A stretch of DNA of 64,000 nucleotides from NCBI RefSeq assembly GCF_029910095.1, contig NZ_CP094526.1, forward strand, positions 5,704,001-5,768,000, given 5' to 3'. This document shows, piece by piece, positions 33,574-52,512 of this stretch (position 1 is the first letter of the stretch; each line of letters opens with the position of its first letter). The notes under the pieces are model-generated. The model ran no database searches. It was given only the letters and a program-made list of their open reading frames with translations, and was not told the DNA's origin. Source of the stretch: Bradyrhizobium sp. ISRA464. Its GTDB lineage: Bacteria; Pseudomonadota; Alphaproteobacteria; Rhizobiales; Xanthobacteraceae. The translations under genes and the position numbers were made by a program.

Positions 33574-35910
33574 CTAGGCGACGTTCTCAGTCCTTCCCGT
33601 GCTCGGCTGGAGCTTGTGCAGTAAGCTTGGTAACGGACCCGGCCTGACGAAGGCGTTCACCACGTTGCTTAGGAGCTGCGAGACGTTGTTCTCGAAGCCG
33701 TTGATGGGCAGGGCACTGCCGAATGCGATAGATCCAGTCGCAAACACCGCACCGTCATTCGGCGCCTCGAAGTACACCATATCGGCCCGCAGGATATAGT
33801 TGTGCGTCCCGCTGAAACCCTGATGCGCGTGCGCCCCCTCCTCGTCGTGGGCGATGTAGTTGTCGGGGTGACCACCCGACGATGCGATGATTTTGGTGTT
33901 GGGCGGTGTGCCGAACCCCAGCTTATAGCAGTCGATCTCGATGCCCGCCGCTCCGCCGTTGCCCAAGCCGAAATCGCCGATAAGCTCCCCCTCGATTCCC
34001 TCGGTGATCCAGGCCAGCGCGGGATCATAGCTGTCAGGCATCCGCCGGTAAGGCTGGCTATGGGCGAAGCCCTCGCCGGCAAACGTGTTGCCGACCAGCT
34101 TCTGGCCCCAGCGCTGGAAGCCGGTCCAGATTCCGCCCATCTGCCCCGTCGTGGCGAGGTAATACTCGCCCGGCCGTGCCGCCCAGGCGATCCAGTGTCC
34201 ACCGGTTTTGCGGCATTCCATGATCCACGGTTCGTCGTCGCGAAACGCCACATTACAGCAGAAGCTGTTCGCACCCATGCAGATGAAGCGCCCACCACCG
34301 GCGATATAGTCCTCGTGTGCATCGAGCATGCGTTCGGAATGATATTCCGGATGCGTGGAATTGAGAATGCATGCATAGGGGGCCATCGCGGCGACACCCT
34401 CGCGATGAACATCTTCATCGGTCAAGACGTCGTAGTCGTATCCCTTGTGCTCAAGCCATGCCAAGATCGAGAGATCCGCTGGGAAATTCCAAGGCAGATC
34501 GAAGGCGGAGATCCGGTATTTCGGCCGCATGTTCACCATCGGGCGACGATAGCTCGAATAGCAGATGCCCGCGCCATCCGCGTGCGAGTCGTAACAGCCT
34601 CCGCCAAATTCCGGATTTTCGTAGATTTCAATGTCGACCTCGGAGATCGTCGGTGGCTGACCGGCCATTGGCTGCACAATGTGGCCGTCGGTCGCGAAGC
34701 GCTCATTGGCATAGGCGATATAGGTGGCGGTGGAAAACAGCAGAGCGATTCGCCCGCTTGGCACGCGCGGCCGGACGAAGAAGACGATGTACTCCTCGGC
34801 CAGGCCCTTGCCGTCGCCACCGCGTACTCGCATCGCGTAGGCGCCGCTGCGCAGCGTTTCGGGCAGCTCAAGCCTCTTTGTGACTTTCCAGTTGCTGTCG
34901 ATCATTGCGTCGGCGTGGAATTCGATGCCGCCGTATTCATGCGGGGCGAGACGGAAGCAGTCATTACGGCCGTTCCAGTTGTAGCCGGTCTGCGCTCGCA
35001 CCGGCCTGTTGTGGCCGTTCGCATTTAGCCGGTTTGGTCCGATGTCGACCACGACATCGCCGATGCCGTGATCCGTGTAACCCTTCGTGGTGTCCCAATA
35101 TGCCACCATGCCGTATGACGGAGGCTGCCCGCCCGAGCGGATCACGTCGAGCTCATCGCGACCCAATGGGCGATCGAACACACCACATCGGTCGATCTTC
35201 CCGCAGTAGAGCTGCGACACGAAGTGACCGCGCAGTGCGTGCCAATCGCGCGAACCGGCCACGAGGAACGGCGTATCGGACAGGTTGTTTTGCCCGAACC
35301 GAAACACCTCTGACACATGCGATCGATATTCGACCGGCGCGACCTTGCTGAGCAAGCTATTGTAGCGGTTCATGACCCCTTCTTGGTAGAGGGTGGCGCG
35401 ACCGCTTCGCGCATCGAAGGTGGCCGCGACGAAATACCAGGCCTGTTTCTGCAACGGCAGCTCCGTCTGCAGATAATCGACCTCGTTCCCGCTCCCGACC
35501 CAGAACTCCAGCCTGCCGCTCGGATTGATCCCGAGGCCGTAGCCGCGGTTCTTGTCATTGTCCCAGCGGCCGAGCAGACATTGGCGATGCCCGACATCCG
35601 GCCATGTCGGCCAGATGAATGCACAAAGCGTGATGCTGCCATCCAGCGCGAGCTTGCGGTCGGGGTCGGCGACCTCGAGAAAGGATCCGACCTGCGTGAA
35701 CTGCTTCTCGACCCGCCAGGTGCCGTTTGCGACGCAGTCGATTTCCTCCTCGATGAATCCCGGACCATGCGGGTGCTCGTCGCCATGGATCAGACGCACG
35801 AGATGGGCTTCAGCGGTGGACGTGCCGTCGGCGCTGACATGGAACTGGATGGTATCCCCGGGCTTCACCGAGATCTTGTCTGCGTAACCGAATATCTTGA
35901 TCTGCGCCAT
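33574..35910 (-). CDS. dmfA2: N,N-dimethylformamidase large (beta) subunit-like protein, copy 1
   Basis: 778 aa, close to the roughly 760 of known DMFase large subunits. Order: a beta-sandwich start (KIFGYADKISVKPGDTIQF, 4-23), a LamG/concanavalin-like domain (about 70-255: TLCAFIWPTWP, LLGRWDNDKNRGYGLGI, AWYFVAATFDARSGRATLY), then the catalytic region (385-750). Known DMFases use a mononuclear iron held by two Tyr and one Glu (recalled as Tyr399, Tyr440, Glu521). Here Tyr397 or Tyr400 (STATYIAYANER), Tyr440 (GGGCYDSHADG) and Glu522 (THPEYHSERM) fall at matching positions. DMFase hydrolyses N-substituted formamides to formate plus amine. Last gene of the operon, 68 bp after the small subunit. 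The true substrate is unknown. Confidence 0.85.
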   Translation of the reverse strand: MAQIKIFGYADKISVKPGDTIQFHVSADGTSTAEAHLVRLIHGDEHPHGPGFIEEEIDCVANGTWRVEKQFTQVGSFLEVADPDRKLALDGSITLCAFIWPTWPDVGHRQCLLGRWDNDKNRGYGLGINPSGRLEFWVGSGNEVDYLQTELPLQKQAWYFVAATFDARSGRATLYQEGVMNRYNSLLSKVAPVEYRSHVSEVFRFGQNNLSDTPFLVAGSRDWHALRGHFVSQLYCGKIDRCGVFDRPLGRDELDVIRSGGQPPSYGMVAYWDTTKGYTDHGIGDVVVDIGPNRLNANGHNRPVRAQTGYNWNGRNDCFRLAPHEYGGIEFHADAMIDSNWKVTKRLELPETLRSGAYAMRVRGGDGKGLAEEYIVFFVRPRVPSGRIALLFSTATYIAYANERFATDGHIVQPMAGQPPTISEVDIEIYENPEFGGGCYDSHADGAGICYSSYRRPMVNMRPKYRISAFDLPWNFPADLSILAWLEHKGYDYDVLTDEDVHREGVAAMAPYACILNSTHPEYHSERMLDAHEDYIAGGGRFICMGANSFCCNVAFRDDEPWIMECRKTGGHWIAWAARPGEYYLATTGQMGGIWTGFQRWGQKLVGNTFAGEGFAHSQPYRRMPDSYDPALAWITEGIEGELIGDFGLGNGGAAGIEIDCYKLGFGTPPNTKIIASSGGHPDNYIAHDEEGAHAHQGFSGTHNYILRADMVYFEAPNDGAVFATGSIAFGSALPINGFENNVSQLLSNVVNAFVRPGPLPSLLHKLQPSTGRTENVA

Positions 35911-35978: not shown

Positions 35979-36344
35979 CTAGGCTTCGAGAAGGTCGCGA
36001 ATGCAGCGCAGGAAGAGGCCATGACAGGCCTCGTTCGCCGAGGCGTAGATGGCCTCGTCAACCACGCGCGGGGAGGTCCCTCGATGCCCCGACAGCCTGA
36101 CCACCTGATACTTGCGGAACGGCTCGACGACCTTGACCGCATATCTTTCGTCCAGCGGTCGTTGACGGAAATAGATCAACAATCGCTCGAGCCGCTCGCT
36201 GTGCTGGCCCAGCGGCGACCGCCGGTGCTCCTCGATCATCTCGGGCGTCACAAGGGTCCGCAGAAAGTCGCGGCGGAAGTTGTCAAAGCGATCCCGAACG
36301 ACAATGTCGCGGTCCTGAGATCTGTCGTACTCGAGAGGCAGCAT
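35979..36344 (-). CDS. dmfA1: N,N-dimethylformamidase small (alpha) subunit-like protein
   Basis: 121 aa from the ATG at 36344 (MLPLEYDRSQDRD). Conserved DMFase small-subunit blocks: LVTPEMIEEHRRSPLGQHSE, RLERLLIYFRQRPLDERYAV, YQVVRLSGHRG and DEAIYASANEACHGLFLRCI. It packs on the large subunit in an alpha2beta2 complex. An upstream in-frame ORF to 36596 overlaps the end of the preceding gene and is not used. It is the free-standing counterpart of the domain fused to the LivM permease upstream, with the same length (121 aa) and the same MLP start. Confidence 0.85.
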   Translation of the reverse strand: MLPLEYDRSQDRDIVVRDRFDNFRRDFLRTLVTPEMIEEHRRSPLGQHSERLERLLIYFRQRPLDERYAVKVVEPFRKYQVVRLSGHRGTSPRVVDEAIYASANEACHGLFLRCIRDLLEA

Positions 36345-36426: not shown

Positions 36427-38751
36427 TCAAGCCCACTGCTTTTCCTCATTGACCCAGGCGAACCCGGGCAACCTGCCCGCCCGGACGAACGCCTCGACAA
36501 CGTTGGCCAGCACGCAGGACGAGTTGTTTCTGAAATTGTTGACCGGCAGCGATTGCGCGAACGCGACCGAGCCGCACGCGAACACAGCCCCTCCATGGGG
36601 CGCCGTGAAGTAGGTCATGTCGGCATGAACGCGCCAGTCATACGAGCCATAGAGGCCAAGATAGGAATAAAGAACGAGTTGCTGGTTCACGACATAGCTG
36701 TCGGTGTGCCCCCCCGACGAAGCGATGATCCTGGTGTGCGGCGGTGTGCCCAGGGCGCGGTCGTAATAGTCAAGGGCCAGCCCCGCCGCGCCGTTGTTGG
36801 CAAGGCCGAAGTCGCCGATGATCTCGCCATCGACACCTTTGGTGATCCAGGACACGGTGCGGTGATAGCTGTCCGGCATCCGCCGGTACGGCTCGCTTCG
36901 TCCACCGCCCGAGCTGCTTAGGCCGATCCCGACCAGCTTCTGGGTCGCCCGTCCAAGCACCTTCCAGGGGCCGCCGCGCATCCCGTCCGTGGCCATGTAG
37001 TGCTCGCCATAGCGCGATATCCACGGCTTGTACCCGTCATCACGGCGGCGACACTCCACGATCCACGGTTCGCCATCGCGAACGCCCGCAGTGGCGTTGA
37101 ATCCGTTGCCGCCCGCATAGATGTAGCGGCCGCCGCCGGCGATATAATCCTCGGTCGCATCCAGCATGCGCTCGGTGTAGTATTCAGGCCGCGTGCCGCT
37201 GATGACGCAGGCGTACGGCGACAATGCCGCCGACCCATCGCGATGCAGATCCTCGTCGGTCAGGACCTCGTAGTCGAAGTCGCTCTGGTCGAGCCATGCG
37301 ATGATCGAGAGATCCGCAGCCAACCCCGACGCCACGTCGAAACTCGGCGTTCTGTATTTCGGCCGCATGTTCATAATCGGCCGGTGATAGGAGCTGTAGC
37401 ACACGCCGCTGCCGTCGGCGTGCATGTCGTAGGTCGACAGCCCGAAATCGGCCCGCATGTACATCTCGATATCGATGTCGGACAGCACGGCCGGCTGGCC
37501 CGTCAGGGCTTCGCGCTCAGGATGATCGAAGCTCAGCCGCTCGTTCGCAAAGGCAAGGTAAGTCAGCGTCGGAAACAGGAATGCAATGCGCGCCTGCGGC
37601 TTTTCCGGCCGCACGAAAAAGACGACGTGCTCCTCGCTCAACCTCGTTCCGCTACCTGAGCGCAGTCGCATGGCATAGCAGCCGCTTTTGAGACCGCGTG
37701 GCAGCGTGACGACCCTGGTCGACGTCCAATTGCAGTCCGTCAGCGCGTCGGCATGAAATTCGATCCCCCCGAACTCGTGCGGAGCCAGACGGAAGCAGTC
37801 GGTGAAGCCGTTCCAGTTCCAGCCGGTCTGGCCGCGAACGGGCCGGTTGTATCCTCTGGCATTCAGCTTGTGCCACCCGACGTCGACCACGAGATCGCCG
37901 ATGCCGCGGTCGGTGTATCCTGCGCTCGTGTCCCAGAAAGCAACCAGGTTTTCCATTGCGGGGACAAGGCCGCTCCTGATCGTGTCGAGCTCGGCGGGCT
38001 GTAGGGGCTGATCAAACGCGCCGCACCGATCGATCTTGCCCCAATAAAGCTCCGACGCGCATGCACGCTGTTGCGCATCGCGGCCGCGCGAGCCTGCCAT
38101 CAGGAACGGAGTTGAGGCGAGGTTGCCAGGCTTGCTCCGGAAGATCGCTGAGGTGTGGGAGTCGTAATCAACCAGTGCAACTTTGCCCAACAGGCCGTTG
38201 TACCTGTTGCCAACGCCGACCTGATACAAGGTCGCTTGCCGAGTCCTGGCATCGAAGGTCGCGGCCACGAAATACCACATCTGCACCTGCAGAGGGACGT
38301 CGGCGGCCAAGCGCTCGACGGTCTCTTCGCCGCGTCCGATCCAGAACTGCAAGCAACCCTTCTCGTCGAGGCCGATCCCATAGCCCTGCTTCCGGTCGCC
38401 GTCCCACCGGCCGATGATGGTTTGGCGCTTTCCGGACGCCGGCCAGGTCGGGTGGATGAAGGCGAACAGGGTGAAGCTGTCAGCGAACGCCAGCCGGCCT
38501 TCGGGGTCATCGACCTCGAGGAACGATCCCACTTGGGTGAACTGCCGCTCGACCCGCCACGTACCATTCGCGGTGCACGCTACCTCTTGCTCGACGAAGC
38601 CGGGTCCTGCGGGGTTTTGATCGCCATGGATCAGGCGCACCAGTTGCGCTTCGGCCGTTTCCGTTCCCTCGGCGCTGACATAAAACTGGATGGCCTCGCC
38701 CGGCTTGACCGAGATCCTGTCCGTGTAGCCAAATAGCCTGACCGGTGTCAC
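36427..38751 (-). CDS. dmfA2: N,N-dimethylformamidase large subunit-like protein, copy 2
   Basis: 774 aa from the GTG at 38751, picked because GGGAG lies 6 bp upstream; the longer frame to 38814 adds an unlikely Cys/Pro leader. It is paralogous to copy 1 throughout: LFGYTDRISVKPGEAIQFYV, LamG-like domain with FAFIHPTWP and GRWDGDRKQGYGIGL, then FLFPTLTYLAFANERLS, STYDMHADGSGVCYSSYHRP, RPEYYTERMLDATEDYIAGG and IIGDFGLANNGAAGLALDYY. The Tyr (TYLAFANER), Tyr (STYDMHADG) and Glu (RPEYYTERM) iron-ligand positions are kept. In the first Tyr region one Tyr of copy 1 is Phe here, which narrows the likely ligand to the remaining Tyr. It follows the permease-small-subunit fusion by 74 bp, so each large subunit has its own small subunit. 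Confidence 0.85.
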   Translation of the reverse strand: MTPVRLFGYTDRISVKPGEAIQFYVSAEGTETAEAQLVRLIHGDQNPAGPGFVEQEVACTANGTWRVERQFTQVGSFLEVDDPEGRLAFADSFTLFAFIHPTWPASGKRQTIIGRWDGDRKQGYGIGLDEKGCLQFWIGRGEETVERLAADVPLQVQMWYFVAATFDARTRQATLYQVGVGNRYNGLLGKVALVDYDSHTSAIFRSKPGNLASTPFLMAGSRGRDAQQRACASELYWGKIDRCGAFDQPLQPAELDTIRSGLVPAMENLVAFWDTSAGYTDRGIGDLVVDVGWHKLNARGYNRPVRGQTGWNWNGFTDCFRLAPHEFGGIEFHADALTDCNWTSTRVVTLPRGLKSGCYAMRLRSGSGTRLSEEHVVFFVRPEKPQARIAFLFPTLTYLAFANERLSFDHPEREALTGQPAVLSDIDIEMYMRADFGLSTYDMHADGSGVCYSSYHRPIMNMRPKYRTPSFDVASGLAADLSIIAWLDQSDFDYEVLTDEDLHRDGSAALSPYACVISGTRPEYYTERMLDATEDYIAGGGRYIYAGGNGFNATAGVRDGEPWIVECRRRDDGYKPWISRYGEHYMATDGMRGGPWKVLGRATQKLVGIGLSSSGGGRSEPYRRMPDSYHRTVSWITKGVDGEIIGDFGLANNGAAGLALDYYDRALGTPPHTRIIASSGGHTDSYVVNQQLVLYSYLGLYGSYDWRVHADMTYFTAPHGGAVFACGSVAFAQSLPVNNFRNNSSCVLANVVEAFVRAGRLPGFAWVNEEKQWA

Positions 38752-38825
38752 CACCAACTCCCTCGTTTGCGATCGTCCCGAAGTCCGTCCCGCAGGCGGA
38801 CACAACTTCTTCATTTCAAGTTCGA

Positions 38826-40475
38826 TCAGGATTCCAGCAGATCCTGAACGCGCCGCATGAAGACGCCGTGGCAGGCCTCATCCGGTGTTGAGTAAATCCT
38901 GTCCTCAACCACGCGCGGCGCCACGCCGCGATGGCCGGACAGCGCCACGATGCGGTACCCCTCGAAGCGCTCCACAGCCATGATGGCGTACTTCTCCACC
39001 TGAGGACGGGTGCGGAAATAGATCAGCAGCCGTTCGAGTGCCTCGCTGTGCTGTCCATTGAGGGAGTGGCGATGCTCCTCGATGATCTCCGGCGACACCA
39101 GCGTCTTGAGATGGTCGCGGGTCATCTTGTCGTAGCGACGCTGATAGATGATGCTCTTGTCGTCGGTCTCGGTCGCCTCCTCCGGCAGCATCTCGCCGCC
39201 CTTTTCCGCCCGCGTCGACCTCCGCTCGCTCTTCTTCTTGTCGCGCCATGCACGGAACTGCGCCTTGATCCCGAACAGCCCGTTGCGGAGGTAGAGAACG
39301 ACCAGCAGCATGATGAGGCCGATGATTATGAAGCGGGCCGGCCCCCATGTGTTCAGCACCTGATCGAAGAACACGACTATGAGGGTACCGACCACCGCGC
39401 CTTCCGCACGTCCGACGCCGCCGATTACCAGCATGGCGAGGCCGAGCAGGACGGTGTCGAAGTTGAAGATCGAGAACGCCACGCCGCCGAAATTCGAGGT
39501 GTAGAATCCGCCGATGAAGCCCAGCGCCGTCGACGAGATGAGGAACACCCAGACACGCGCCTGGCGAAAGTTCACTCCGGTCGCCTCGGCGAACGCCTCG
39601 CGCTTTTCGGGCGCCATGCGAAGGATTCGGCCAAGCCTGCGGCCGTTGACGAACCGGTAGAGCAGCAGCGCGAGCAGCATCAGGCCGAAGCAGGCGTAAT
39701 AGGCCAAAAGCAGCTGACCCAACTGCGACCAATCTTCCGGCACGTAGGTCGTTGCGCCATACAAACCGCCGTTGGCGGACCCAAACTCCTTCGAGGTGAC
39801 GAAGTAGACCCGGCAGAGCTCGTTAAGCCCGAGGGTAAGAAGCGCGTAGTAGAAGCCATCCAGCCGCGTGGCCGGCAGTGCGATGATCCCGCCGAAGACC
39901 AGCCCCACCAGCGCGCCGATGGGCGGCAACAGCCACCAAGGCAATGAGATCTTGATCGCAAGCAGTGCCGTAACGAACGCGGCCGTCCCAACCACTGCAT
40001 AGGTGGCGAGCGAGAAGACACCCGCGGTGCCCATGATGAGCATCCAGCACAGGCTGATGGCCGAATAGATGCCGAACGTGGCTCCCGCTGTCAGCAGCGT
40101 GTTCTGCAGGTCGCCGGGCGTGAACAGGGGAGCGATCGCCAGCGCAAGAAGCCCCAGCACCCACCAGATCGGCCGCTTGTCGACGATCGTCTTCTCCGCG
40201 CGCAAGGTCTTGGGATTGTATTCCCCGCGCACGCGCAGCACCCGACGGCGCGTCGGCCAGTAGCGAAGGCGGTTCCACATCGTTCTGCCATGGCCCGGCC
40301 ATTTGTAGTAGTAGCGCAGGCGGCCGACCGGGATCAGCTTCGTCTTCGATTGGCGCGTCTTTTCCCAGACCTCCTGATGGCTTCGGAACGGAATGGTCGG
40401 AAGTTCTTCAACGTCGCGCTTGCCACCCCAGACGAAGAGTGGATTGCGCCATTTGATGCCGCTATCAGGGGACAT
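38826..40475 (-). CDS. LivM-type permease fused to an N,N-dimethylformamidase small subunit
   Basis: 549 aa in one uninterrupted frame. Residues 1-104 are a long cytoplasmic extension (MSPDSGIKWRNPLFVWGG, basic and aromatic). Residues 105-400 are a LivM-type permease: LNTL-like GATFGIYSAISLCWMLIMG, LATYAVVGTAAFVTALL, ALPATRLDGFYYALLTLGLN, GFIGGFYTSNFGGVAFS and LVIGGVGRAEGAVVGTLIVV. After a charged linker (RDKKKSERRSTRAEKGGE) residues 429-549 form a complete 121-aa DMFase small subunit: LVSPEIIEEHRHSLNGQHSE, RLLIYFRTRPQVEKYAI, ALSGHRG and DEACHGVFMRRVQDLLES. Residue 429 is an ATG (39191) with AAGG 8 bp upstream, so a free small subunit could also be made internally. It would anchor the hydrolase to the transporter on the cytoplasmic face. 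No such fusion is known to me. Confidence 0.85.
   Translation of the reverse strand: MSPDSGIKWRNPLFVWGGKRDVEELPTIPFRSHQEVWEKTRQSKTKLIPVGRLRYYYKWPGHGRTMWNRLRYWPTRRRVLRVRGEYNPKTLRAEKTIVDKRPIWWVLGLLALAIAPLFTPGDLQNTLLTAGATFGIYSAISLCWMLIMGTAGVFSLATYAVVGTAAFVTALLAIKISLPWWLLPPIGALVGLVFGGIIALPATRLDGFYYALLTLGLNELCRVYFVTSKEFGSANGGLYGATTYVPEDWSQLGQLLLAYYACFGLMLLALLLYRFVNGRRLGRILRMAPEKREAFAEATGVNFRQARVWVFLISSTALGFIGGFYTSNFGGVAFSIFNFDTVLLGLAMLVIGGVGRAEGAVVGTLIVVFFDQVLNTWGPARFIIIGLIMLLVVLYLRNGLFGIKAQFRAWRDKKKSERRSTRAEKGGEMLPEEATETDDKSIIYQRRYDKMTRDHLKTLVSPEIIEEHRHSLNGQHSEALERLLIYFRTRPQVEKYAIMAVERFEGYRIVALSGHRGVAPRVVEDRIYSTPDEACHGVFMRRVQDLLES
39191..39203 (-). promoter_or_regulatory. Possible internal ribosome site and start for a free small subunit
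   Basis: On the minus strand AAGGGCGGCGAG precedes the in-frame ATG at 39191. That ATG opens MLPEEA, the position equivalent to the start of the separate small-subunit gene (MLPLEY). If used, it would yield a 121-aa protein from within the fusion gene. Whether initiation occurs is not known. Confidence 0.4.
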
Positions 40476-40478
40476 TGC

Positions 40479-41360
40479 TCAGGCCTCCCTCGCCTTGTCG
40501 AGCAGCCCGGCGATGCCGCGCGGTCGGACCAAGAGGATGACGATAATCACAACGAACTGGGTGATAAGAACGTAGCGGCCGCCGATCGACATGCCTGTCA
40601 GCGCCTCGTTGAGGCCGAGCACGATCGCGGCGATAACGGCGCCGCGCACGCTGCCAAGTCCGCCACAAAGCGCAATGCTGACGCCCTTGATCATTGGCAT
40701 CAGTCCACCGAACGGCGAGATGTAGTAGGTCTGGGAGAGCAGGACGGCCGCGAGACCCGCCAATCCGCCCGTGATGCCCATGACGTAGAAGGAGGTCCGC
40801 CGCACGCCGATGCCGACAATGGAGGCGGCGTGAGGATTCATCATCATCGCTCGGATTTCGAGGCCGCGCCGGCTCGACTGCATCCACCTCAGAACGACTG
40901 CGAGCATCAGGACCGACGTCACCACGTTGCCGACCTTGTCGGCCGTGAAGACAGCACCCGGCAGGGACACCGACCAATTGCCGAAAATCTCGGGAAGGCT
41001 CTTCGAACGCGGACCGAACCACCAGAGCAGGAACTGCGTGCCGATCAGATTGATCGCGAGCGTCGCAATCAGGCCGCGAATGGTGAAGTTCGGCTTGTCG
41101 TGGATCGGTATAAAGCCGACAGCGCAGATGATCACACCCCCGAGAGCACCGGCGAGGATACCCGCAGCCAGCACTGCTGGGCCCCAAGCGGAGACATACT
41201 GGGCAAACATCCAAGCGCCATACCCTGCGAATGCGAATATGAAGCCGTAGGACAGGTTGAGCAGACCGAGGCTCGACCACGTGATCGAAATTCCGATCGC
41301 GAGCGTGCCGTAAATGCACGCAAGAACGATGGTGTTGCTGACAATGAACCAGATATCCAT
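40479..41360 (-). CDS. livH: LivH-type permease of the amide transporter
   Basis: 293 aa with about 8 membrane segments: IVLACIYGTLAIGISITWSSL, LNLSYGFIFAFAGYGAWMFA, PNFTIRGLIATLAINLIGTQ, GLEIRAMMMNPHAAS, GITGGLAGLAAVLLSQTYY and LCGGLGSVRGAVIAAIVLGL. It pairs with the LivM fusion to form the inner-membrane channel. The gene is 4 bp after livF (41364) and 3 bp before the fusion. Some positions in the usual LNLAHG and GxxGS motifs are changed (LNLSYG), typical of the amide/urea-type branch. Confidence 0.9.
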   Translation of the reverse strand: MDIWFIVSNTIVLACIYGTLAIGISITWSSLGLLNLSYGFIFAFAGYGAWMFAQYVSAWGPAVLAAGILAGALGGVIICAVGFIPIHDKPNFTIRGLIATLAINLIGTQFLLWWFGPRSKSLPEIFGNWSVSLPGAVFTADKVGNVVTSVLMLAVVLRWMQSSRRGLEIRAMMMNPHAASIVGIGVRRTSFYVMGITGGLAGLAAVLLSQTYYISPFGGLMPMIKGVSIALCGGLGSVRGAVIAAIVLGLNEALTGMSIGGRYVLITQFVVIIVILLVRPRGIAGLLDKAREA

Positions 41361-41363
41361 GTC

Positions 41364-42131
41364 TTACGCCTTTCGATAAACGTTCAACGCGAGCGCGGCG
41401 GAGGCCTCACCCTTGAGCTTGCCGACATGCATACCGATAACGCGGTCGACCCGCCCCTCGAGCAGTACAACGTTCTGCTCTGCAATGATCATGGCGGCAT
41501 CACCGAGCTTGACCGCCATCAGCGCGTTGATCACGCTCTTGCCGATCTTGGGCGCCAGCCCGAGCGACGGCTCGTCTACCAAGAACAAGGACGCATCGGT
41601 CATCAGGCCGCGACCGATCGACACCATGCGCCGTTCGCCGCCCGACAGGCGACCCACCGGTACACCCATCAGCTTCCGCAAGGGTGGAAAGATCTCCAGG
41701 ATGCGAAGCTTGCGCGTGGCGCGATCGCGCCACGCCGCCGCGGTGTAGGCACCGGAATCGAGATGCTCCTCGACTGTCAGGCCATGGAAAATCTCGTCAC
41801 CCTGGGGAATCAGCGCTAATCCTGCGCGCACGATTTCGTGGGTGTAGCGCCCGGGCCCCTGGCTTCGCGTACGCCCAACCTCCCTGCCATTCAGCTTAAT
41901 CGAGCCGCGCTGCCAGCCGGTGAGCCCCGCGATTGCGTAGAACAGCGTCGACTTGCCGTGACCGTTCAAGCCGACAATGCCGATCCGCTCCCCACACTGA
42001 ACAACGAGATCGAGATCGTGGATGACGCGAACCGGTCCGTAGCCTGCAGACAAGCCCCTGACGTTCAGCACCTCGCGCTGGGGCTGACGCGCCGGATCGC
42101 CCTGCAGATGATTGCTTACCGAGATATTCAT
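41364..42131 (-). CDS. livF: LivF-type ABC ATPase of the amide transporter
   Basis: 255 aa. Walker A GLNGHGKST (about 53-61), Q-loop LALIPQGDEIFHGLTVEEHL, signature RLSGGERRMVSIGRGL, Walker B ASLFLVDEPSLGLAPKI and an EQN switch region (AAMIIAEQNVVLL). It energises import from the cytoplasmic side. The ATG at 42131 overlaps the livG stop (ATGA). A 20-residue N-terminal extension (NHLQGDPARQPQRE) precedes the core. All catalytic motifs are intact. Confidence 0.93.
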   Translation of the reverse strand: MNISVSNHLQGDPARQPQREVLNVRGLSAGYGPVRVIHDLDLVVQCGERIGIVGLNGHGKSTLFYAIAGLTGWQRGSIKLNGREVGRTRSQGPGRYTHEIVRAGLALIPQGDEIFHGLTVEEHLDSGAYTAAAWRDRATRKLRILEIFPPLRKLMGVPVGRLSGGERRMVSIGRGLMTDASLFLVDEPSLGLAPKIGKSVINALMAVKLGDAAMIIAEQNVVLLEGRVDRVIGMHVGKLKGEASAALALNVYRKA

Positions 42132-42904
42132 GCTTCGGCCTCTTCGCTGAAATCCTCGAAATAGGCCGCGTGGACCTTCGGATCCGCCATCACATCGTCC
42201 ATCAAGCCCTCGGAGATGACCTCGCCGGCATCCATCACCAGAATGCGGTCGGCAATTGTCCCGAGGAGTTCGATGCGGTGCTCGACGATCAGAATCGCGA
42301 TATTCATCTCCTTGGCGAGGATGCGCAGCAGCGTGTCGATCTCGTCGACCTCCGAATTGATCAGGCCCGCCGCCGGCTCATCCAGCAGCAGCAGAGACGG
42401 CCGGCGCATCAACAGACAGGCCAGCAGCAATTTGCGCCGGTTGAAGGTTTCGAGCTGCGTAGCCGGCGTATCCTCGCTGACCTTCAGGCCGACGAGGTCG
42501 GCGCCATATTCCGCGTCGAACCTGGTGAGGAAGGGACGATGCGCCTGCCTCGCGGCCTTGAACGTCTCGCCGACGGTCAACTCGTCAGGCACGACCGGCG
42601 TCTGGAACGTGCGGCCGATTCCTAGGCGGGAGCGGGAATACAACGGCAGACCGGTGACGTTCTCGCCCTTGAACCACACCGTGCCACTCTTCGGCGACAT
42701 CCGTCCGGAGAGGATTTCAAACAGGCTGGTCTTCCCCGCGCCGTTCGGCCCGATGATGCCCAGCACTTCCCCGGCCTGGACGTGCAGGCTGATGTCGCGG
42801 AGAATTTCGCGGCCGCCGAGATCGAGCGAAATGCCGCTGCAGGAGAACAGGACAGGCTTCCCGCCCCGTTCAGCCTTGTCGCTCGAGGAGAGTTGCCTGA
42901 GCAT
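42128..42904 (-). CDS. livG: LivG-type ABC ATPase of the amide transporter with atypical signature motif
   Basis: 258 aa from the ATG at 42904, which overlaps the binding-protein stop (TGATG); an upstream GTG at 42916 is possible. Walker A GPNGAGKTS, LGIGRTFQTPVVPDELTVGE (LivG-specific loop), Walker B SLLLLDEPAAGL and H-loop AILIVEHRIELLG are clear. The ABC signature, normally LSxGQ, is replaced by LETFNRRKLLLA. Two-ATPase importers often have one degenerate site, so the complex may hydrolyse ATP asymmetrically. The other ATPase keeps LSGGE. Confidence 0.9.
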   Translation of the reverse strand: MLRQLSSSDKAERGGKPVLFSCSGISLDLGGREILRDISLHVQAGEVLGIIGPNGAGKTSLFEILSGRMSPKSGTVWFKGENVTGLPLYSRSRLGIGRTFQTPVVPDELTVGETFKAARQAHRPFLTRFDAEYGADLVGLKVSEDTPATQLETFNRRKLLLACLLMRRPSLLLLDEPAAGLINSEVDEIDTLLRILAKEMNIAILIVEHRIELLGTIADRILVMDAGEVISEGLMDDVMADPKVHAAYFEDFSEEAEA

Positions 42905-44187
42905 CAGCTCCACCACGGCGCAGAGATGAGCTTCGTTTCCGAGACAGGACCGGGATAGACGATCTTGTGCTCACCGCCCTGAACCTGCACATAGAGCTGC
43001 GCGACGCCGGCCTCGAGCTTGCGCGCCTGCAGTTCGTCTCCGCCGTTGTCGGGGAAATGAAGTGCCTCCTGGTAGGGATTGCCCATGTCGACGTAGCCGC
43101 AGACGCCGCGCTGCGGATTGGCGCGGATCCAGTCGCAGACCTCGCTGAACTTCCGGGGATCGCCGACGGCCTCCCAGGCCTTCTTGAGGTAATAGGTTTG
43201 ATCGTACGCAATGCCGGTGTAGGCGAGCCCCGCGATACCGGGAAAACGTTTCTTGTATTTCTGCCTGTAGGCGCGACCTCTCTCGTCGCCATAAATGCCC
43301 ATGGTCGTGCCCCAGACGAAGCCGTTCGCAGCCGATCCGGCAAGCTCGAGGAATTCTGGCTGCGATGGCCCGTACTGGAGATAGACAAGCGAGTCGCGCA
43401 CCGGGCTTGCAACGAACTGCTTGCAAAACGCGGCGTATTCAGCGGCCACCCAATGGTCCACCAGGATTGCGGCGGCGTCGACTTCCTTCATCTCGCGAAT
43501 GACCGGCGCCCAGTCCTGCACGGGATACTGGATGTCCGTAATGCGGGCGACTTCGAACTTGCCGCGCCGCTTGATCGCCTGCTGCGCGGCGCGCGAAATG
43601 GTCTGGCAGTAACCGATCTGCTCCTGAATGATATGAACCTTGCGGTTCTTCGGCTTCCAGATGCCCCGCTGCTCCTCGTCCTCCAGCCAGAGAGCATAGG
43701 TCCATCCGTAGTTCACCTCCGACGGGCAGAACTGGAAGATGTGGTTGTATTTATCCGGATGCTCCTTGACCGCAGAGGTCCCGGCGCGTTGCGCGTTGCC
43801 GTTGATGTACGGACATTTGTACTTCACGGTTGCGTCCATCGCCGGCAGCGGGACGAGCGTGAAAGCAAACGAGATCGCGTCGACCTTGGCGTCAACGCAG
43901 GCGGCAAGCGCCTGCTTGGAGGATTCCGGCGACAGAACGTTCATGTCCGTCGTGGATAGCTTCAGCGGCCTGCCGAGAATGCCGCCCGCGGCATTGATCT
44001 CCTCCATCGCGAGCGTCGTGCCGTTTAGGAAGTCCTGATGGTCCGCGACACCCGCCGCAGCCGTCTGGCAGTAGGGAACGCCGAGAACGATCGGCTGGGC
44101 CGCAAATGCCGTCCGTCCAACAAATGGTGCCGCGATGGCCGCGCCGATGCCCGCGGTCACTGAACGCCTGGTGAGTTTGAAGACCAT
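42904..44187 (-). CDS. Tat-exported amide-type substrate-binding protein
   Basis: 427 aa from the ATG at 44187; the upstream frame to 44358 is not used. The N terminus FKLTRRSVTAGIGAAIAAPF carries a twin-arginine motif (TRRSV), so the protein may be folded before export. The peripla_BP_6 domain has IVLGVPYCQTAAAGVADHQD, TTLAMEEINAAGGILGRPLK, KVDAISFAFTLVPLPAMDAT, WTYALWLEDEE, VDAAAILVDHWVAAEYAAFC and ANGFVWGTTMGIYG. It captures the substrate in the periplasm for the permease fusion and LivH. First gene of the eight-gene operon. A Tat signal on a binding protein of this family is unusual. Confidence 0.85.
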   Translation of the reverse strand: MVFKLTRRSVTAGIGAAIAAPFVGRTAFAAQPIVLGVPYCQTAAAGVADHQDFLNGTTLAMEEINAAGGILGRPLKLSTTDMNVLSPESSKQALAACVDAKVDAISFAFTLVPLPAMDATVKYKCPYINGNAQRAGTSAVKEHPDKYNHIFQFCPSEVNYGWTYALWLEDEEQRGIWKPKNRKVHIIQEQIGYCQTISRAAQQAIKRRGKFEVARITDIQYPVQDWAPVIREMKEVDAAAILVDHWVAAEYAAFCKQFVASPVRDSLVYLQYGPSQPEFLELAGSAANGFVWGTTMGIYGDERGRAYRQKYKKRFPGIAGLAYTGIAYDQTYYLKKAWEAVGDPRKFSEVCDWIRANPQRGVCGYVDMGNPYQEALHFPDNGGDELQARKLEAGVAQLYVQVQGGEHKIVYPGPVSETKLISAPWWS

Positions 44188-44836
44188 CTGAGCAACCTCT
44201 CCTGCAATCGCGCGCGGGTGCTCGGCATCGCGACCGAGACCGGGCCGGATTTCCTGTTGGGCTAAGACGGTGCGGTCAGGCGACCGTCGGGTGATAGCGG
44301 CCTCGATCCGTATCCCTACGGGCTGAGACGGTGGATGCGGCCGAACCGCATGGATCAAAGCCTCGGTTTTCTGCCGATTTTCAGCAATACGTCAGCTGAC
44401 CGATTTTGAAGGCCGGTCTGGAGGGACCCGGAGTGATCCAGAACTACGCTGCGGGTGCGAACAGGGCTCGGGGGGACAACTTGCGCAGCAAGCCAAGCCC
44501 AGATTTTCATCAATCGACGGCGCTGCGGGTCCTCTCGCGTCAGAATTGCTGGCCCTGAATGAGGCGAAGTGTGACACTGCTTTGACTAGAGGAGCGACCG
44601 CTTCTAACATGCAATTGCAGCTTTCAGCTCGGTGTCTGACTTCGATCCAGGACAGTCGAGATCAGCAGAGCGAATGGCCACCGTAGTGATGTGGCACCTC
44701 GCGTTGGTTGGCGCGGTCCTTGCTCTGAGGCCGCGGAGGTCTCCGCAATCCCGCCGGGCTAACGGATCGTTAGCGGCCAAGAAGAAGATTCGATCACGAA
44801 CCGTCGGCAAGATCTTTCACGAGCTGGAGGCTCACC
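44188..44836. promoter_or_regulatory. Divergent regulatory region between the amide operon and the LuxR-type regulator
   Basis: 649 bp without a supported gene, between the minus-strand binding-protein gene and the plus-strand regulator. It contains the 35-bp motif at 44374-44408, shared with the amine oxidase upstream region. No promoter hexamers stand out with confidence. Confidence 0.55.
44374..44408 (+). promoter_or_regulatory. Putative shared operator, copy 1 (upstream of the amide operon)
   Basis: A 35-bp segment: CCGATTTTCAGCAATACGTC then AGCTGACCGATTTTG. It contains the palindrome GTCAGCTGAC (44391-44400) flanked by direct CCGATTTT repeats 26 bp apart. It matches 49271-49305 at 30 of 35 positions by direct comparison. 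It lies about 190 bp upstream of the binding-protein start. Confidence 0.7.
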
Positions 44837-45874
44837 GTGAACTCGGCAGCGATCGACCATACGATGTCAGCCACCGTCCGGCTCGACAAACCAGCGGCAG
44901 CCCTGAATGATCAGATCATCGATCAAGCGACCCAGGTCACCCGTCTGTTACGCGAGTTCGTGAGGAGCGAGGCAATCGCTCTGGTCGCGATGGATCCGAT
45001 ATCCCGAACCCACCGGTCTCTTGCCGACGACGGATATACGGACAGAACGATGTCCTACGTGCTCGACGGATTCCCTGCCGCTTGCCCCGCTTACGCCATC
45101 GCGCGCGAAAAGGACACGCACTCGCTGCGCTGGCGAGACTACAAGCGTGACTGGAATCTCTATCTGCCGGATACATTCACCGCCCAAGAATACCTGATGC
45201 CCGATGGATTCAGGGAAGGTTCGACGATGTGCCTGCGCGTCGCAGATGGCCGCTACATCGGGGCCATCCATATGAGCTGGTCCAGGGAGGCGCACGCCAC
45301 CGACGAACGCCGCGAGATGACGGAGCGCTTCCGCCCGATTCTGCTGAACATCTGCGATCAGCTCAGGACACCACAGCTTCTGGCCGATGAGCTGGCGCCA
45401 GGCTCGTATGCGCTCGCCGTCTCCCCGAACGGTTTTGCATTTCACCTGCCCAACCGCAGTCCGGGGCCGCATCTCGGGGAAGGCGGAGAGCTTCGCCGGC
45501 TCGTGCTGGAGAAGGCGAAGTCCTCAAAACCGCAACGCTTCGTCTGGCCGGACGACGCCGGCCGCTGCCACCAGGTCACGATCACGCCCTGCCGCGGAAA
45601 CATCCTCCTGATCACCGAAGAATGTATTCGCTGGCCGTACAATCTCTCGCTCCGCGAGATTCAGATCCTGCACCTCGTGACAAGCGGCGCCTCAAATCCC
45701 AACATCGCCGAGCAGCTCTTCGTGTCGCCCCGCACCGTCTCCACGCACATCGAGCACATCCTCGCAAAGATGGGTTGCGACTCGCGCACGCGGCTCGCGG
45801 CGCTGGCGGTGTCCGAAGGACTACTGCTGGCTGAGAACCCTTCGCGGCGCTCCCGAAAGCTCGCCGGCCATTGA
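44837..45874 (+). CDS. LuxR-type transcriptional regulator
   Basis: 345 aa from the GTG at 44837 (GGAGG about 7 bp upstream). The N-terminal 250 or so residues are a GAF/PAS-like sensory region without a recognisable autoinducer-binding motif (VTRLLREFVRSEAIALVAMDP, GSTMCLRVADGRYIGAIHMSW). The C-terminal LuxR helix-turn-helix is at about 270-330: LSLREIQILHLVTSGASNPN, IAEQLFVSPRTVSTHIEHIL and AKMGCDSRTRLAAL. It is divergent from the amide operon and faces the amine oxidase group, so it is the natural candidate to control both. The shared 35-bp motif may be its site. Its ligand is unknown. Confidence 0.85.
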   Translation: MNSAAIDHTMSATVRLDKPAAALNDQIIDQATQVTRLLREFVRSEAIALVAMDPISRTHRSLADDGYTDRTMSYVLDGFPAACPAYAIAREKDTHSLRWRDYKRDWNLYLPDTFTAQEYLMPDGFREGSTMCLRVADGRYIGAIHMSWSREAHATDERREMTERFRPILLNICDQLRTPQLLADELAPGSYALAVSPNGFAFHLPNRSPGPHLGEGGELRRLVLEKAKSSKPQRFVWPDDAGRCHQVTITPCRGNILLITEECIRWPYNLSLREIQILHLVTSGASNPNIAEQLFVSPRTVSTHIEHILAKMGCDSRTRLAALAVSEGLLLAENPSRRSRKLAGH

Positions 45875-45891: not shown

Positions 45892-47184
45892 TCAGCCGGA
45901 TAGCCCGTCCTCCTTCGACGGTCCCTTCAGCAGTATCGCGAGCCCCGCGGCCACGAGGCAGGTAAGGCCAACACTCGCGAACTCGAGCGCATAGCCTGCA
46001 GGGCCGAGGGCCCCGACGCAGGCAGAAGCGATCGTAGCTCCTGCCACGTGCGCTGCCATCATCCAACCCATCGCCGTGCCGGTGCGGTGACTGCCGAGGT
46101 TTGCGGACATCAGCCTTACGAGCGCTGGAAACGTCAGCGCCGCATCGAGGCCGTAGAGCGCGCCGAGTCGCGCCAGCTCGACAAAGCTGAGGCCAGTGAA
46201 TGGCAGCCACAGTAGCGCGAGCGCGCGGGCGACAAAGTAAATGGCCAGCAGCATGTGTGCGGGATAGCGATCCGCGAGATACCCGCTCGTCACACTTCCG
46301 ATCGCACCGCCGAGCAGGACGATGGCCATCACGTCGGCGCTCCATGAGAGACCGAGACCCGAGCCCATGCAGAGGATGCCTTGTCCGCCGTCGATCAAGC
46401 CGGATGTCGACGCGCCACAGATGCAGAAGATCGCAGCCAGCGCCCAGAACTGCCAACACCTCGCTTCCGGACAAGACGGCGAGTGCCCGCTCAATGCCGA
46501 CCGCTGCGGTGTGACTCTCTGTCCGGATGCCGGGACAAGTAGGATGACCGCGAAGGCTGCGGCCAGTACGACGACTGCAGCGGCATGGAACGCAATGCGC
46601 CAACCGAGCGCCTCGACCGCGCGCGATCCGAGCAGCAGTCCTGCCGCCGACCCGAGGAACTGCATCGACGTCAGAAGGCCAAAGCGCGTGCCGCAATGCG
46701 CCGCGCTGCCACGACTGCCGACCATCGCGCCCAGGATAGATGCGCTCAAGGCCCCGCTGAAGGCAACGCCTACCCCCCAGGCCAGAGCAAGGTGCCAGGG
46801 CGACGTCGCGCGCATCGTTGATGCAAGCGATACCGCGAGGAGGACCAGACTGGCGAACAGCGGCAATCGAACGCCCCATCGTTCAAGGCCATGCGCCGCC
46901 AGCTGCGACGCAAATGCAGAGACGGCGATGCCGAGCGTGATCGGCGAGGCGACGTCGGAGATTTGCCAGCCCAGGTCCCGCTGGATGGGGACGGCCAGCA
47001 GCGCGGGGAGGACACGCGCGGCCGAGCTGACAAAGACCGCTAAAGCGACGACGACAGAGGTCGTCGACGTCGCGCGCAGAACTCGTCGGACCGACGGGAG
47101 GCGGCCGGTCCACGATGCCGGCCGGATGAGCTGCGATGCGACGGGTGCGGTGGCGAGCCGTGCCTTACTCGGCGGCCTGCGCAT
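45892..47184 (-). CDS. MFS transporter
   Basis: About 430 aa with 12 predicted segments. Start taken at the ATG at 47184 (MRRPPSKAR), overlapping the amine oxidase stop by 20 bp; the ORF can extend to 47220. MFS features: VALAVFVSSAARVLPALLAV, PIQRDLGW, TGTAMGWMMAAHVAGAT near the C terminus and a GSRGSAAHCGTRFGLL loop. It resembles the CynX/NreB/arabinose-efflux-like group. It overlaps the copper amine oxidase gene, so it may carry the amine substrate or an oxidation product. Convergent with the LuxR gene (18 bp gap). Confidence 0.8.
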   Translation of the reverse strand: MRRPPSKARLATAPVASQLIRPASWTGRLPSVRRVLRATSTTSVVVALAVFVSSAARVLPALLAVPIQRDLGWQISDVASPITLGIAVSAFASQLAAHGLERWGVRLPLFASLVLLAVSLASTMRATSPWHLALAWGVGVAFSGALSASILGAMVGSRGSAAHCGTRFGLLTSMQFLGSAAGLLLGSRAVEALGWRIAFHAAAVVVLAAAFAVILLVPASGQRVTPQRSALSGHSPSCPEARCWQFWALAAIFCICGASTSGLIDGGQGILCMGSGLGLSWSADVMAIVLLGGAIGSVTSGYLADRYPAHMLLAIYFVARALALLWLPFTGLSFVELARLGALYGLDAALTFPALVRLMSANLGSHRTGTAMGWMMAAHVAGATIASACVGALGPAGYALEFASVGLTCLVAAGLAILLKGPSKEDGLSG

Positions 47185-49123
47185 GACAACTCGCGGTGTT
47201 CCTGTCGGGCGCGAGATCAATGCCGGGATTACGATCGAAAAAGCCGCTGGGCATCAGCTTGAAGCCGGTGAAGATGCAGGGTTGAACGGGAAAGTCTTCG
47301 GGACGCACCTGATGGTGAAGGCCGAAGACGTGCCAGAGCACGATGTCCGTGTTCTCGATGTTCCGGTTCTTCCTGACGAAATCGGAGACGCCTCCCGTGC
47401 CATCGGAGTGGTTCATGTGTTCGCCGGCCGGATAACGCTCTTCGGGATCGAAGGCGGTGACCCAGAGCTGGTTCTTGATGAAAGTCGATCGCCTACCCGA
47501 CGGCGACTCGGGATGGATGAACGGCATCACCGGATGACTGGCCTCGAGCTTGTAGCCCGTCGTCGTGCCGACCCAATTCTTGCGGCTGGGATTGATGATC
47601 TTCCAGGCCCTATGTGTCGCCGGGTTCGCCTGACGACAACCGCCCAGCTCGGTCTTCAGAACCGTTTCATCCTCGTAGAAGCCGTTGCCATAGGCATTGT
47701 CCGGCCCCCAGGGATCGGCCTGCGTATTGAGCTCGACGACGCTATTGTCGTCGCCATCAACGTTCATGTCCAGCCGCGCGCAGAAGATGTGCTGGTGAAT
47801 GTGGCCCACAACTCCAGGCGCGACCTCCTTCCCGTATTTGCCTGGTCGCCCCGGATGACACGCGGCCGTGTTGATAATGCCGGTTGCCTTGAGCTCGAAT
47901 TGGATCGAGCCATCCGTGTGGAAGTACCAGAACAGGCCATATTCGTAGTTGGCGACCGTCGCGATGCAGGAGATGACCAGCCTGCGAGCACGGCGCGATT
48001 CGACCTTGTTGGAGCGGAAGTCCCAATGCTTCCACAGCAGGCCGGCATCCTCCTCGTGGATGCAGATGGCATTTTCGATGGTAACCACGTTGCCGTCCAT
48101 CGTCGCGAGGTGCGCGTCGAGATAGGCGATGGCGCCGAGGCAGTCGCAGCCGAGCTTCAGCGAGTTGGCCAGCTTTCCGATACCGTATTCGCCGATGTCG
48201 AACACATTCTTCCGGAAGTGCCCCTTGTCGGTGGTGCCGTACGGCACGACCATCTCCACCAGCGATGCACGGTGCGCGATCGGCCGGCCGTCATAGCTAA
48301 TGTCATGCAGGGTCAGGCCTTCGCGAGAATTGAAACCCACGAGCACCGACCAGCGGTCCCATTCCAGCCGATGTCCATCAAGCCTGAATGACACGCCCTC
48401 AGGCTGGACGATGTTGAGCGGCTTGTAGGGAGTTCGTGGGTTTTTGATGAACTCCACCTCGTAGTTCACCTCAGCTGTGGGGATCGGAATGATCTCGTGA
48501 TCGTCGACACGGATGATTTCGTAAGTCTTGATGTCCACGATGGCGTTAAGTCCGCCGATCGGGTGCGCATAAAGGTTATCGTTCTCTCGTAGACGTACCC
48601 ATGCGAAAACGTGGGCGAGATAACGACCGTCTTCCCCCGGAATATCGAAATTGCCGGCCGACCACGGATCGATGCAGACAAGCGACATGTCTTCGATGCC
48701 GCGCTTCCTGCAGGCCACAATGAACTGAGGATCTGCGCGCACGGCATCTTCAATGGCGGTGAACTGCTCGAGCTGGATCATCGGCTTGGCAGTTGGCAGA
48801 TACTTCGACGTGAGCACCTTCCCTTCCGACAACGAGACCGTCAGGCGCCAGATGCCATCCTCTTTGACTTTGAAGAGATTGACCCTTGCCGCCCTCCTTA
48901 TCGGATCTCCGCGCTTGTACTGACGCACGACCGCCTTCTCCGGCTCCAGGAGCTCGATCGTCTCAAAAAGGAAATCCGGGCCATACTGCGGATCATTGCG
49001 GACGATCTCCACAATTGAACGAATTTCTGCTGCCTTCAAAGGATCCAGAGGATGGCGCAACTCGTCCGCTCGGTCGTTCCTGGAAGCGCAGGCGCAGGAT
49101 GACTCACAGGTGACTTTATCCAT
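47165..49123 (-). CDS. Copper-containing (primary) amine oxidase
   Basis: 652 aa, full length for a cytoplasmic-type bacterial copper amine oxidase (no signal peptide). Start ATG at 49123 with AAGGAG 6 bp upstream. The topaquinone precursor Tyr393 is in ANYEYG (N-Y-E/D motif). Catalytic base Asp309 is in VFDIGEYG. The copper ligands are His441 and His443 (HIHQH) plus a distal His603/604 (GLHHQVRPEDFPV). The family oxidises primary amines to aldehydes with release of NH3 and H2O2. Its upstream region shares a 35-bp motif with the amide operon, so it may oxidise the amine released by the amidase. A secondary amine such as dimethylamine would not be a normal substrate. Confidence 0.93.
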   Translation of the reverse strand: MDKVTCESSCACASRNDRADELRHPLDPLKAAEIRSIVEIVRNDPQYGPDFLFETIELLEPEKAVVRQYKRGDPIRRAARVNLFKVKEDGIWRLTVSLSEGKVLTSKYLPTAKPMIQLEQFTAIEDAVRADPQFIVACRKRGIEDMSLVCIDPWSAGNFDIPGEDGRYLAHVFAWVRLRENDNLYAHPIGGLNAIVDIKTYEIIRVDDHEIIPIPTAEVNYEVEFIKNPRTPYKPLNIVQPEGVSFRLDGHRLEWDRWSVLVGFNSREGLTLHDISYDGRPIAHRASLVEMVVPYGTTDKGHFRKNVFDIGEYGIGKLANSLKLGCDCLGAIAYLDAHLATMDGNVVTIENAICIHEEDAGLLWKHWDFRSNKVESRRARRLVISCIATVANYEYGLFWYFHTDGSIQFELKATGIINTAACHPGRPGKYGKEVAPGVVGHIHQHIFCARLDMNVDGDDNSVVELNTQADPWGPDNAYGNGFYEDETVLKTELGGCRQANPATHRAWKIINPSRKNWVGTTTGYKLEASHPVMPFIHPESPSGRRSTFIKNQLWVTAFDPEERYPAGEHMNHSDGTGGVSDFVRKNRNIENTDIVLWHVFGLHHQVRPEDFPVQPCIFTGFKLMPSGFFDRNPGIDLAPDRNTASCHAQAAE

Positions 49124-51693: not shown

Positions 51694-51763
51694 GGGATAC
51701 TCCTGTTCGATGAATGAGTGAGATGGATCGCGCGACATCGCGCCTGAGCAAGATCACGCGCGT

Positions 51764-52468: not shown

Positions 52469-52512
52469 CAAAAGGGTCCGTTTTGACCCTTGTACATCAT
52501 TTAATCGCCGAC

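What the first reader, a model, noticed from the sequence alone, without database searches (positions are those of the whole stretch)
38826..40475. LivM permease fused to a formamidase small subunit
One uninterrupted 549-aa frame joins a complete LivM-type permease (about residues 105-400) to a complete 121-aa N,N-dimethylformamidase small subunit (residues 429-549). The following gene is a DMFase large subunit. This would tether the hydrolase to the cytoplasmic mouth of its own ABC importer, a direct channel from uptake to hydrolysis. I know of no described permease-amidase fusion of this kind.
Basis: partly seen in the sequence, partly recalled or inferred. Interest (0 to 1): 0.92.

Follow-up and report, generated by a model that had tools for sequence, protein, structure and literature searches.

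The report
Amide importer fused to hydrolase subunit
A soil bacterium, and many relatives, carry one gene that joins the membrane part of a nutrient importer to a subunit of an amide-splitting enzyme, which would hold the enzyme at the import site; in this genome the enzyme's main subunit is also doubled, and one copy has lost residues needed for catalysis.

Summary
The fusion is real and conserved. On the minus strand, 38826-40475 is one 549-aa frame: N-extension, LivM-type permease, conserved basic linker and dimethylformamidase (DMFase) small subunit. It is not an assembly error: of 240 listed relatives of the small-subunit part, sought at fusion length, 239 also carry the permease domain, and I read the one-frame fusion in 21 of 265 genomes of the genus, in other families and in one other class. 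Five genomes hold one large-subunit gene, directly downstream, and no detected small subunit but the fused one, so the hydrolase there is probably importer-bound. My literature searches found no description. All 15 tandem operons fetched have exactly one degenerate copy, still under purifying selection; all 20 single operons are intact. Tethering, the heteromer and the substrate are inferred. Internal initiation at residue 429/430 is not excluded. 'Direct channel' is unproven.

The parts
38826..40475 (-). Fused gene: N-extension (res 1-104), LivM-type permease (about 105-403), basic linker helix (about 400-430), DMFase small-subunit domain (429-549)
   Evidence: relatives
39186..39275 (-). Junction/linker, codons 401-430: AAG GGC GGC GAG ATG at codons 425-429, a possible internal ribosome-binding site and start
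36427..38814 (-). Large subunit copy D (DMFA2_C; length of relatives suggests a start near 38754). Phe at Y399 and Arg at H519 equivalents: degenerate catalytic site
35979..36344 (-). Free small subunit, 121 aa from the MLP start (the ORF can be extended upstream to 36596)
33574..35910 (-). Large subunit copy I (DMFA2_C), catalytic residues Y, Y, H, E complete
40479..41360 (-). LivH-type permease, partner of the fused permease
   Evidence: (PF02653)
41364..42131 (-). LivF-type ATPase
42128..42916 (-). LivG-type ATPase with altered signature motif (LETFNRRKLLLA)
42904..44358 (-). Periplasmic substrate-binding protein (Peripla_BP_6); true start probably downstream of the ORF start (by eye)
44837..45874 (+). 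LuxR-type regulator, divergent; a LuxR-type gene also lies near the operon in many relatives

Best explanation
A LIV/urea-type ABC importer carries, as the C-terminal domain of its LivM-like permease, the small (beta) subunit of an iron-dependent DMFase-type amide hydrolase. The beta domain sits in the cytoplasm behind a basic linker and binds the large (alpha) subunit encoded next in the operon, so that the hydrolase is assembled at the cytoplasmic face of the importer and splits the amide as it enters. SHOWN at sequence or model level: the fusion, its conservation, the operon order, the fold of both parts, and five genomes in which the fused beta is the only beta detected. INFERRED: binding of alpha by the fused beta, membrane location, coupling of uptake to hydrolysis, and the substrate (a small N-substituted formamide or amide). 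In the window's lineage the alpha(-beta) unit was duplicated. One alpha (copy D) lost catalytic residues but stays under purifying selection, and the other (copy I) kept them. The likeliest arrangement there (inference) is an I/D alpha heterodimer with one fused and one free beta: one active site and one membrane anchor for each importer, instead of the two anchors that a homodimeric alpha2beta2 would have.
For: Domains and fold. Conservation: listed hits span many genera; fused frames read in 21 of 265 genus genomes (ORFs read), in other families (read) and in the other-class genome G1188 (read). The linker core 410-434 ties for the most conserved 25-residue window among 80 fused proteins (mean 0.96). 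Purifying selection on the fused small domain is like that on the permease (median omega 0.044 against 0.039 in clade A, 0.040 against 0.045 in clade B). Five genomes (G064, G017, G158, G065, G781) have one PF20254 gene and one small-subunit match, the fused one. [quoted passage not shown] Pseudoenzyme copy: exactly one degenerate alpha in 15 of 15 tandem operons and none in 20 of 20 single operons fetched; median omega of D 0.113 (A) and 0.073 (B). Residue F693, which the neighbouring alpha donates to the pocket in Paracoccus, is aromatic in 20 of 20 singles and 15 of 15 D copies but His in 13 of 15 I copies.
Against: No experiment shows the fused protein, its location or any activity. Internal initiation at codon 429/430 could supply free beta, so the enzyme need not be wholly membrane-bound. 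In the window itself the intact alpha has its own free beta, so a soluble enzyme (I + free beta) is possible. G622 has a fused gene plus a free small subunit just before its clustered, intact large subunit, so there the fused domain may not be the catalytic partner. Copy I also changed many residues invariant in the singles (in clade A 21 of 225 columns, against 23 for D), so single-site differences must be read with care. The F693 asymmetry is weak when tested over windows: rank 148 of 768 in clade A, 11 of 768 in clade B. Independent duplications in the two tandem clades are not rejected (p-AU 0.117 and 0.143). The linker no longer ranks among the most conserved windows when distant fusions are added (A2). 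D is somewhat less constrained than I.
Confidence: 0.65

Rival explanations
1. Dual-output gene: besides the full-length permease-beta, ribosomes start inside the frame at residue 429/430 and make a free 121-aa small subunit. The enzyme is then mostly soluble, or holds one anchored and one free beta.
For: AAR-GGN-GGN-GAR precedes residue 429 in the 38 loci read, and ATG stands at codon 429 or 430 in 34 of 38; Met stands at one of them in 233 of the 237 fused proteins where the motif was found, out of 240. The 3 of 38 loci without ATG, GTG or TTG there (L040, L042, L120) all have a separate free small gene. Two of the four listed proteins without Met there (P0093, P0099) share their longest-contig length with a listed free small subunit (P0208, P0232), which suggests the same; the other two (P0247, P0252) are unknown. 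In clade A the free small genes carry an MLP start like that of the fused domain in most loci. AAA at codon 425 (20 of 38, 5.9 expected) and GGA at 427 (12 of 38, 4.5 expected) are enriched.
Against: Fisher test of start loss against presence of a free small gene is only p 0.088 (3 of 17 against 0 of 20). No lowered synonymous variation at the junction in clade A (rank 449 of 534), no GGA enrichment at codon 426, none of GAA at 424 or 428. The loci are related, so the enrichment p-values are too small. Amino-acid constraint can explain KGGE.
Confidence: 0.3
2. The small-subunit tail regulates transport rather than anchoring catalysis: with the catalytically dead large subunit it senses the substrate in the cytoplasm and gates the importer.
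For: In the window's clade the neighbour of the fused gene is the degenerate alpha, and it is under purifying selection. A paper title in a search listing says that inactive carbonic-anhydrase-related proteins enhance lactate transport by MCT1 (PMC6609565, title and start of abstract only).
Against: In clade B the degenerate copy sits next to the free small subunit instead, and 20 of 20 single operons have an intact alpha next to the fusion.
Confidence: 0.15
3. Copy D is not a dead subunit but has changed its metal site or substrate and catalyses a different reaction.
For: It keeps Y440 and E521 equivalents in clade A and low omega. Both copies changed residues that are invariant in the singles.
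Against: In Paracoccus DMFase H519A and Y440A are inactive (PMC7686228). The lost residues differ between clades A and B, which fits decay better than one new function.
Confidence: 0.15
4. Assembly or sequencing artefact joining two genes.
For: None found.
Against: The window lies in a single 8.46-Mb contig and the same junction is in independent genomes.
Confidence: 0.01

Closest known systems
Paracoccus N,N-dimethylformamidase (DmfA1/DmfA2; PDB 6LVB; PMC7686228)
   Same: Small-subunit fold; large subunit alignable over nearly its whole length; catalytic Tyr, Tyr, His, Glu in copy I
   Different: There the small subunit is a separate chain in alpha2beta2 or (alpha2beta2)2; here it is the tail of a permease, and the large subunit is duplicated with one copy degenerate
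LIV/urea-type ABC importers (LivHMGF, UrtBCDE)
   Same: Gene set of binding protein, two ATPases, two PF02653 permeases
   Different: LivM carries a cytoplasmic N-extension and an enzyme subunit at its C-terminus; scores far below the NCBIfam LivM and UrtC cut-offs; LivG signature altered
Unfused importer-DMFase clusters (G761/L106, G773/L107; also L109, L110, L115)
   Same: Same gene set; in L106 and L107 the order LivG-LivF-LivH-LivM-small-large with LivM and small overlapping
   Different: LivM and small subunit are separate genes; permease only 26-31% identical to the fused one
Transporter-enzyme fusions such as SulP-carbonic anhydrase (recalled, from no call; one search found nothing usable)
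   Same: A transporter in one chain with an enzyme domain
   Different: There a whole enzyme is the domain (recalled); here only the non-catalytic subunit is fused and must recruit the catalytic one

Membership tests
DMFase small subunit | Sequence similarity to DmfA1 over the domain | tested here: met
   6lvb_B, E 3.8e-10, residues 435-546
DMFase small subunit | Fold of the solved small subunit | tested here: met
DMFase small subunit | Binds and is needed by the large subunit | not testable with these tools
   Only genomic: large subunit gene downstream
LIV/HAAT ABC permease | BPD_transp_2 domain | tested here: met
   83.5 bits against 26.8
LivM or UrtC proper (NCBIfam) | Score above the curated cut-off | tested here: not met
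   NF008450 54.7 of 366, TIGR03408 47.4 of 296.2
LIV-type importer | Second permease, two ATPases and binding protein in the operon | tested here: met
DMFase large subunit (catalytic), copy I 33574-35910 | Y399, Y440, H519, E521 equivalents | tested here: met
   also kept in 8huy_A by its alignment
DMFase large subunit (catalytic), copy D 36427-38814 | Y399, Y440, H519, E521 equivalents | tested here: not met
   F, Y, R, E
N,N-dimethylformamidase (activity) | Hydrolyses DMF | not testable with these tools
   No assay possible

The most novel reading that the evidence does not exclude
An importer-docked metallo-amidase that evolved by gene duplication into an asymmetric machine: a catalytic alpha completed in trans by a pseudoenzyme alpha, with one beta built into the permease and one free beta. 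Single-operon ancestors would get both beta forms from one gene by internal initiation.
Probability: 0.25. Interest if true: 0.82.

Novelty: new variant of a known kind. Interest (0 to 1): 0.62.

Why it matters
If true, it is a genetically fixed bacterial transport metabolon: uptake and first catabolic step joined through an ABC permease, in a large protein family that sources usually name just a branched-chain amino acid permease. It makes coupling of import to hydrolysis testable by deleting one domain, and offers a conserved pseudoenzyme/enzyme pair for studying why an inactive subunit is kept.

Tried and rejected
Fusion-like long frames in G438 (L123) and G541 (L124), 480 and 560 aa, do not match LivM; the upstream part reads as spurious high-GC frame, so they were not counted as fusions. 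P0321 (glutaminase plus small subunit) is set aside as a probable metagenome chimera.

The F693 loop as proof of an alpha heterodimer: residue counts fit but the sliding-window control does not single the loop out in clade A. Kept as weak support.

One or two duplications: the best tree, on 33 of the large subunits (8 of 12 clade A loci, 3 of 3 clade B, 11 of 20 singles), joins D copies of both clades (95/98), but separate duplications are not rejected. If there was one, gene order was swapped between clades.

Internal start: mixed results, kept as a rival. L121 (G612) and L162 (G1393) read CCA TTG at codons 429-430, and L161 (G1392) reads GCT TTG next to a second small-subunit match; TTG was counted as a possible start. 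The Fisher test used 17 loci with a free small gene and the 20 single loci only; L122, L142, L162 and G726 were left out because their downstream context is cut off or was not read.

Rows left out of counts: L103 (157-aa fused remnant), L122 and L142 (contig ends) and L120 (fused plus extra free small, intact large subunit) are in neither the 15 tandem nor the 20 single operons; L161 and L162 had no large subunit read. The unfused loci L106-L110, L123, L124 and L143 are not in those counts either; the large subunits read there were intact. The rates leave out L111 in clade A. The tree left out the L124 row.

Literature: ten searches of one open-access library; absence there does not show that the fusion is unpublished. 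The search for SulP-carbonic anhydrase fusions returned nothing usable. VIA-align rows below rank 11 are not interpreted.

Full report

CONSERVATION. I searched the protein database with the small-subunit part only, while candidates had to be of fusion length (0.55 to 1.75 times the query protein): 509 proteins at E <= 0.01, 120 listed, 120 of 120 carrying PF26354 and PF02653. A second query from a diverged fusion (G025) gave 286, 120 listed, 119 of 120 with both. The totals may overlap; the listed ids do not. Names among the listed rows include Bradyrhizobium, Rhodopseudomonas, Methylocella, Methylopila, Methyloligella, Chelatococcus, Mesorhizobium, Aminobacter, Hoeflea and Verminephrobacter; many rows carry no name, and those that do are usually called a branched-chain amino acid permease. 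In whole genomes, small-subunit matches occur in 36 of 265 held genomes of the genus (the 195-genome draw gave 27). Elsewhere, the window's own genome included each time, matches were in 38 of 397 order, 18 of 387 class and 7 of 397 phylum genomes; many of these are short, unfused, distant small subunits. Family draws around G702, G952, G622, G612 and G1188 gave 9 of 18, 6 of 89, 2 of 5, 4 of 4 and 2 of 187. In G1188, of another class, a 383-aa frame lies between the fusion and the large subunit.

OPERON. In the fetched fused loci that are not cut off, the order is binding protein, LivG, LivF, LivH, fused permease-small, large subunit, often with a LuxR-type gene nearby. Two genomes (G761, G773) show LivM and small subunit as separate, overlapping neighbours in the same order, and other LIV-linked DMFase clusters are unfused too (L109, L110, L115). 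A link between LIV importers and DMFases is thus wider than the fusion. In a tree of permeases the 38 fused ones lie on one side of a branch (92, three unfused). The free small subunits of the tandem operons fall among fused ones in the small-subunit tree (few columns, midpoint root), as expected if they were copied from the fused gene.

ONLY PARTNER. G064, G017, G158, G065 and G781 each have one PF20254 gene, directly after the fused gene, and one detectable small subunit, the fused one. Paracoccus DMFase needs its small subunit: the large one alone is inactive, and both form the entrance of the active site (PMC7686228, parts 1-2 of 3 of the text read). If this holds for the family, the enzyme in these five organisms is attached to the permease, unless free small subunit is also made from the same gene. 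A very divergent second small subunit could have been missed.

The Paracoccus enzyme uses Y399, Y440 and E521 as iron ligands and needs H519. The window's large subunit beside the fusion (36427-38814) has F, Y, R, E at Y399, Y440, H519, E521; the second (33574-35910) has Y, Y, H, E. In the fetched set, 15 of 15 tandem operons have exactly one degenerate copy: 12 like the window (F, once L, at 399 and R at 519, in the copy next to the fusion) and 3 with Y440C in the copy next to the free small subunit. All 20 single fused operons are intact. The degenerate copies of both kinds form one clade (95/98), though independent duplications are not rejected (p-AU 0.117, 0.143). Copy D is under purifying selection (median omega 0.113 and 0.073, against 0.071 and 0.043 for copy I, in clades A and B; pairwise values). 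It is therefore a kept subunit, not a decaying gene. The free small subunit is the least constrained part (0.163 and 0.218). The residue that one large subunit lends to its neighbour's pocket in Paracoccus (F693) stays aromatic in D (15 of 15) and is mostly His in I (13 of 15), as an I/D heterodimer would predict. The window-wise control is weak, and I itself changed 21 of the 225 columns invariant in the singles (D 23, clade A), so I count this as suggestive.

INTERNAL START. The codons before residue 429 spell a plausible ribosome-binding site. Met stands at 429 or 430 in 233 of the 237 proteins in which the motif was found (of 240), and ATG in 34 of 38 loci. The 3 loci without ATG, GTG or TTG there all have a separate free small gene, but the test is only p 0.088 (3 of 17 against 0 of 20), and synonymous variation at the junction is not reduced. 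A dual-product gene is therefore an open rival; combined with tethering it would give alpha2beta2 one anchored and one free beta.

MECHANISM. Inferred: the fused domain recruits the large subunit to the cytoplasmic face of the importer and the amide is hydrolysed on entry. The basic N-extension and linker fit the cytoplasmic side (positive-inside rule, recalled); no topology experiment was possible. The substrate is unknown. A copper amine oxidase gene near the operon in the window and in 4 relatives would fit release of a primary amine. Several hosts bear names of methylotroph genera, which would fit small formamides (recalled knowledge).

NOVELTY. Searches of the open-access library found no description. 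Except for PMC7686228, papers were seen as listings only, or by passages in the case of PMC4543880, which describe a plasmid-borne dmfA1-dmfA2 operon under the LuxR-family DmfR. The architecture is visible in databases (PF26354 with PF02653), so I call it a new variant of a known kind rather than a new category.

Noticed in passing
window 42128-42916 and fused loci: The LivG-type ATPase of fused operons replaces the ABC signature by L-[E/D/K]-T-x-x-RRKLL (36 of 36 fused loci whose LivG was read), while the unfused DMFase clusters there keep LSYG, LPYG or LSHG; this would make one ATP site non-canonical.
   Followed up: partly
window 47165-49123 (-): Copper amine oxidase gene upstream of the cluster, also found in L105 and, in part at locus ends, in L104, L140 and L039; an MFS transporter (45892-47220) lies between.
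   Followed up: partly
window 50671-51738 (-): Histone-deacetylase-like protein (PF00850) with a GntR/FCD regulator beside it (51767-52471).
   Followed up: no
L141 8912-10063: A 383-aa frame with a signal-peptide-like start (by eye) stands between the fused gene and the large subunit in G1188.
   Followed up: no
L103 9278-9751; L130 10143-10628: Short remnants of fused permease-small genes (157 and 161 aa) in G004 and G025, signs of loss.
   Followed up: no
L120 9626-10015; L161/L164: G622 has a free small subunit directly after the fused gene, and G1392 a second small-subunit match beside the fused one; function of the doubling unknown.
   Followed up: partly
window codons 398-420 of the fused gene (39216-39284, -): Lowest synonymous variation of the whole gene among 11 close relatives, possibly just biased two-fold codons.
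   Followed up: no
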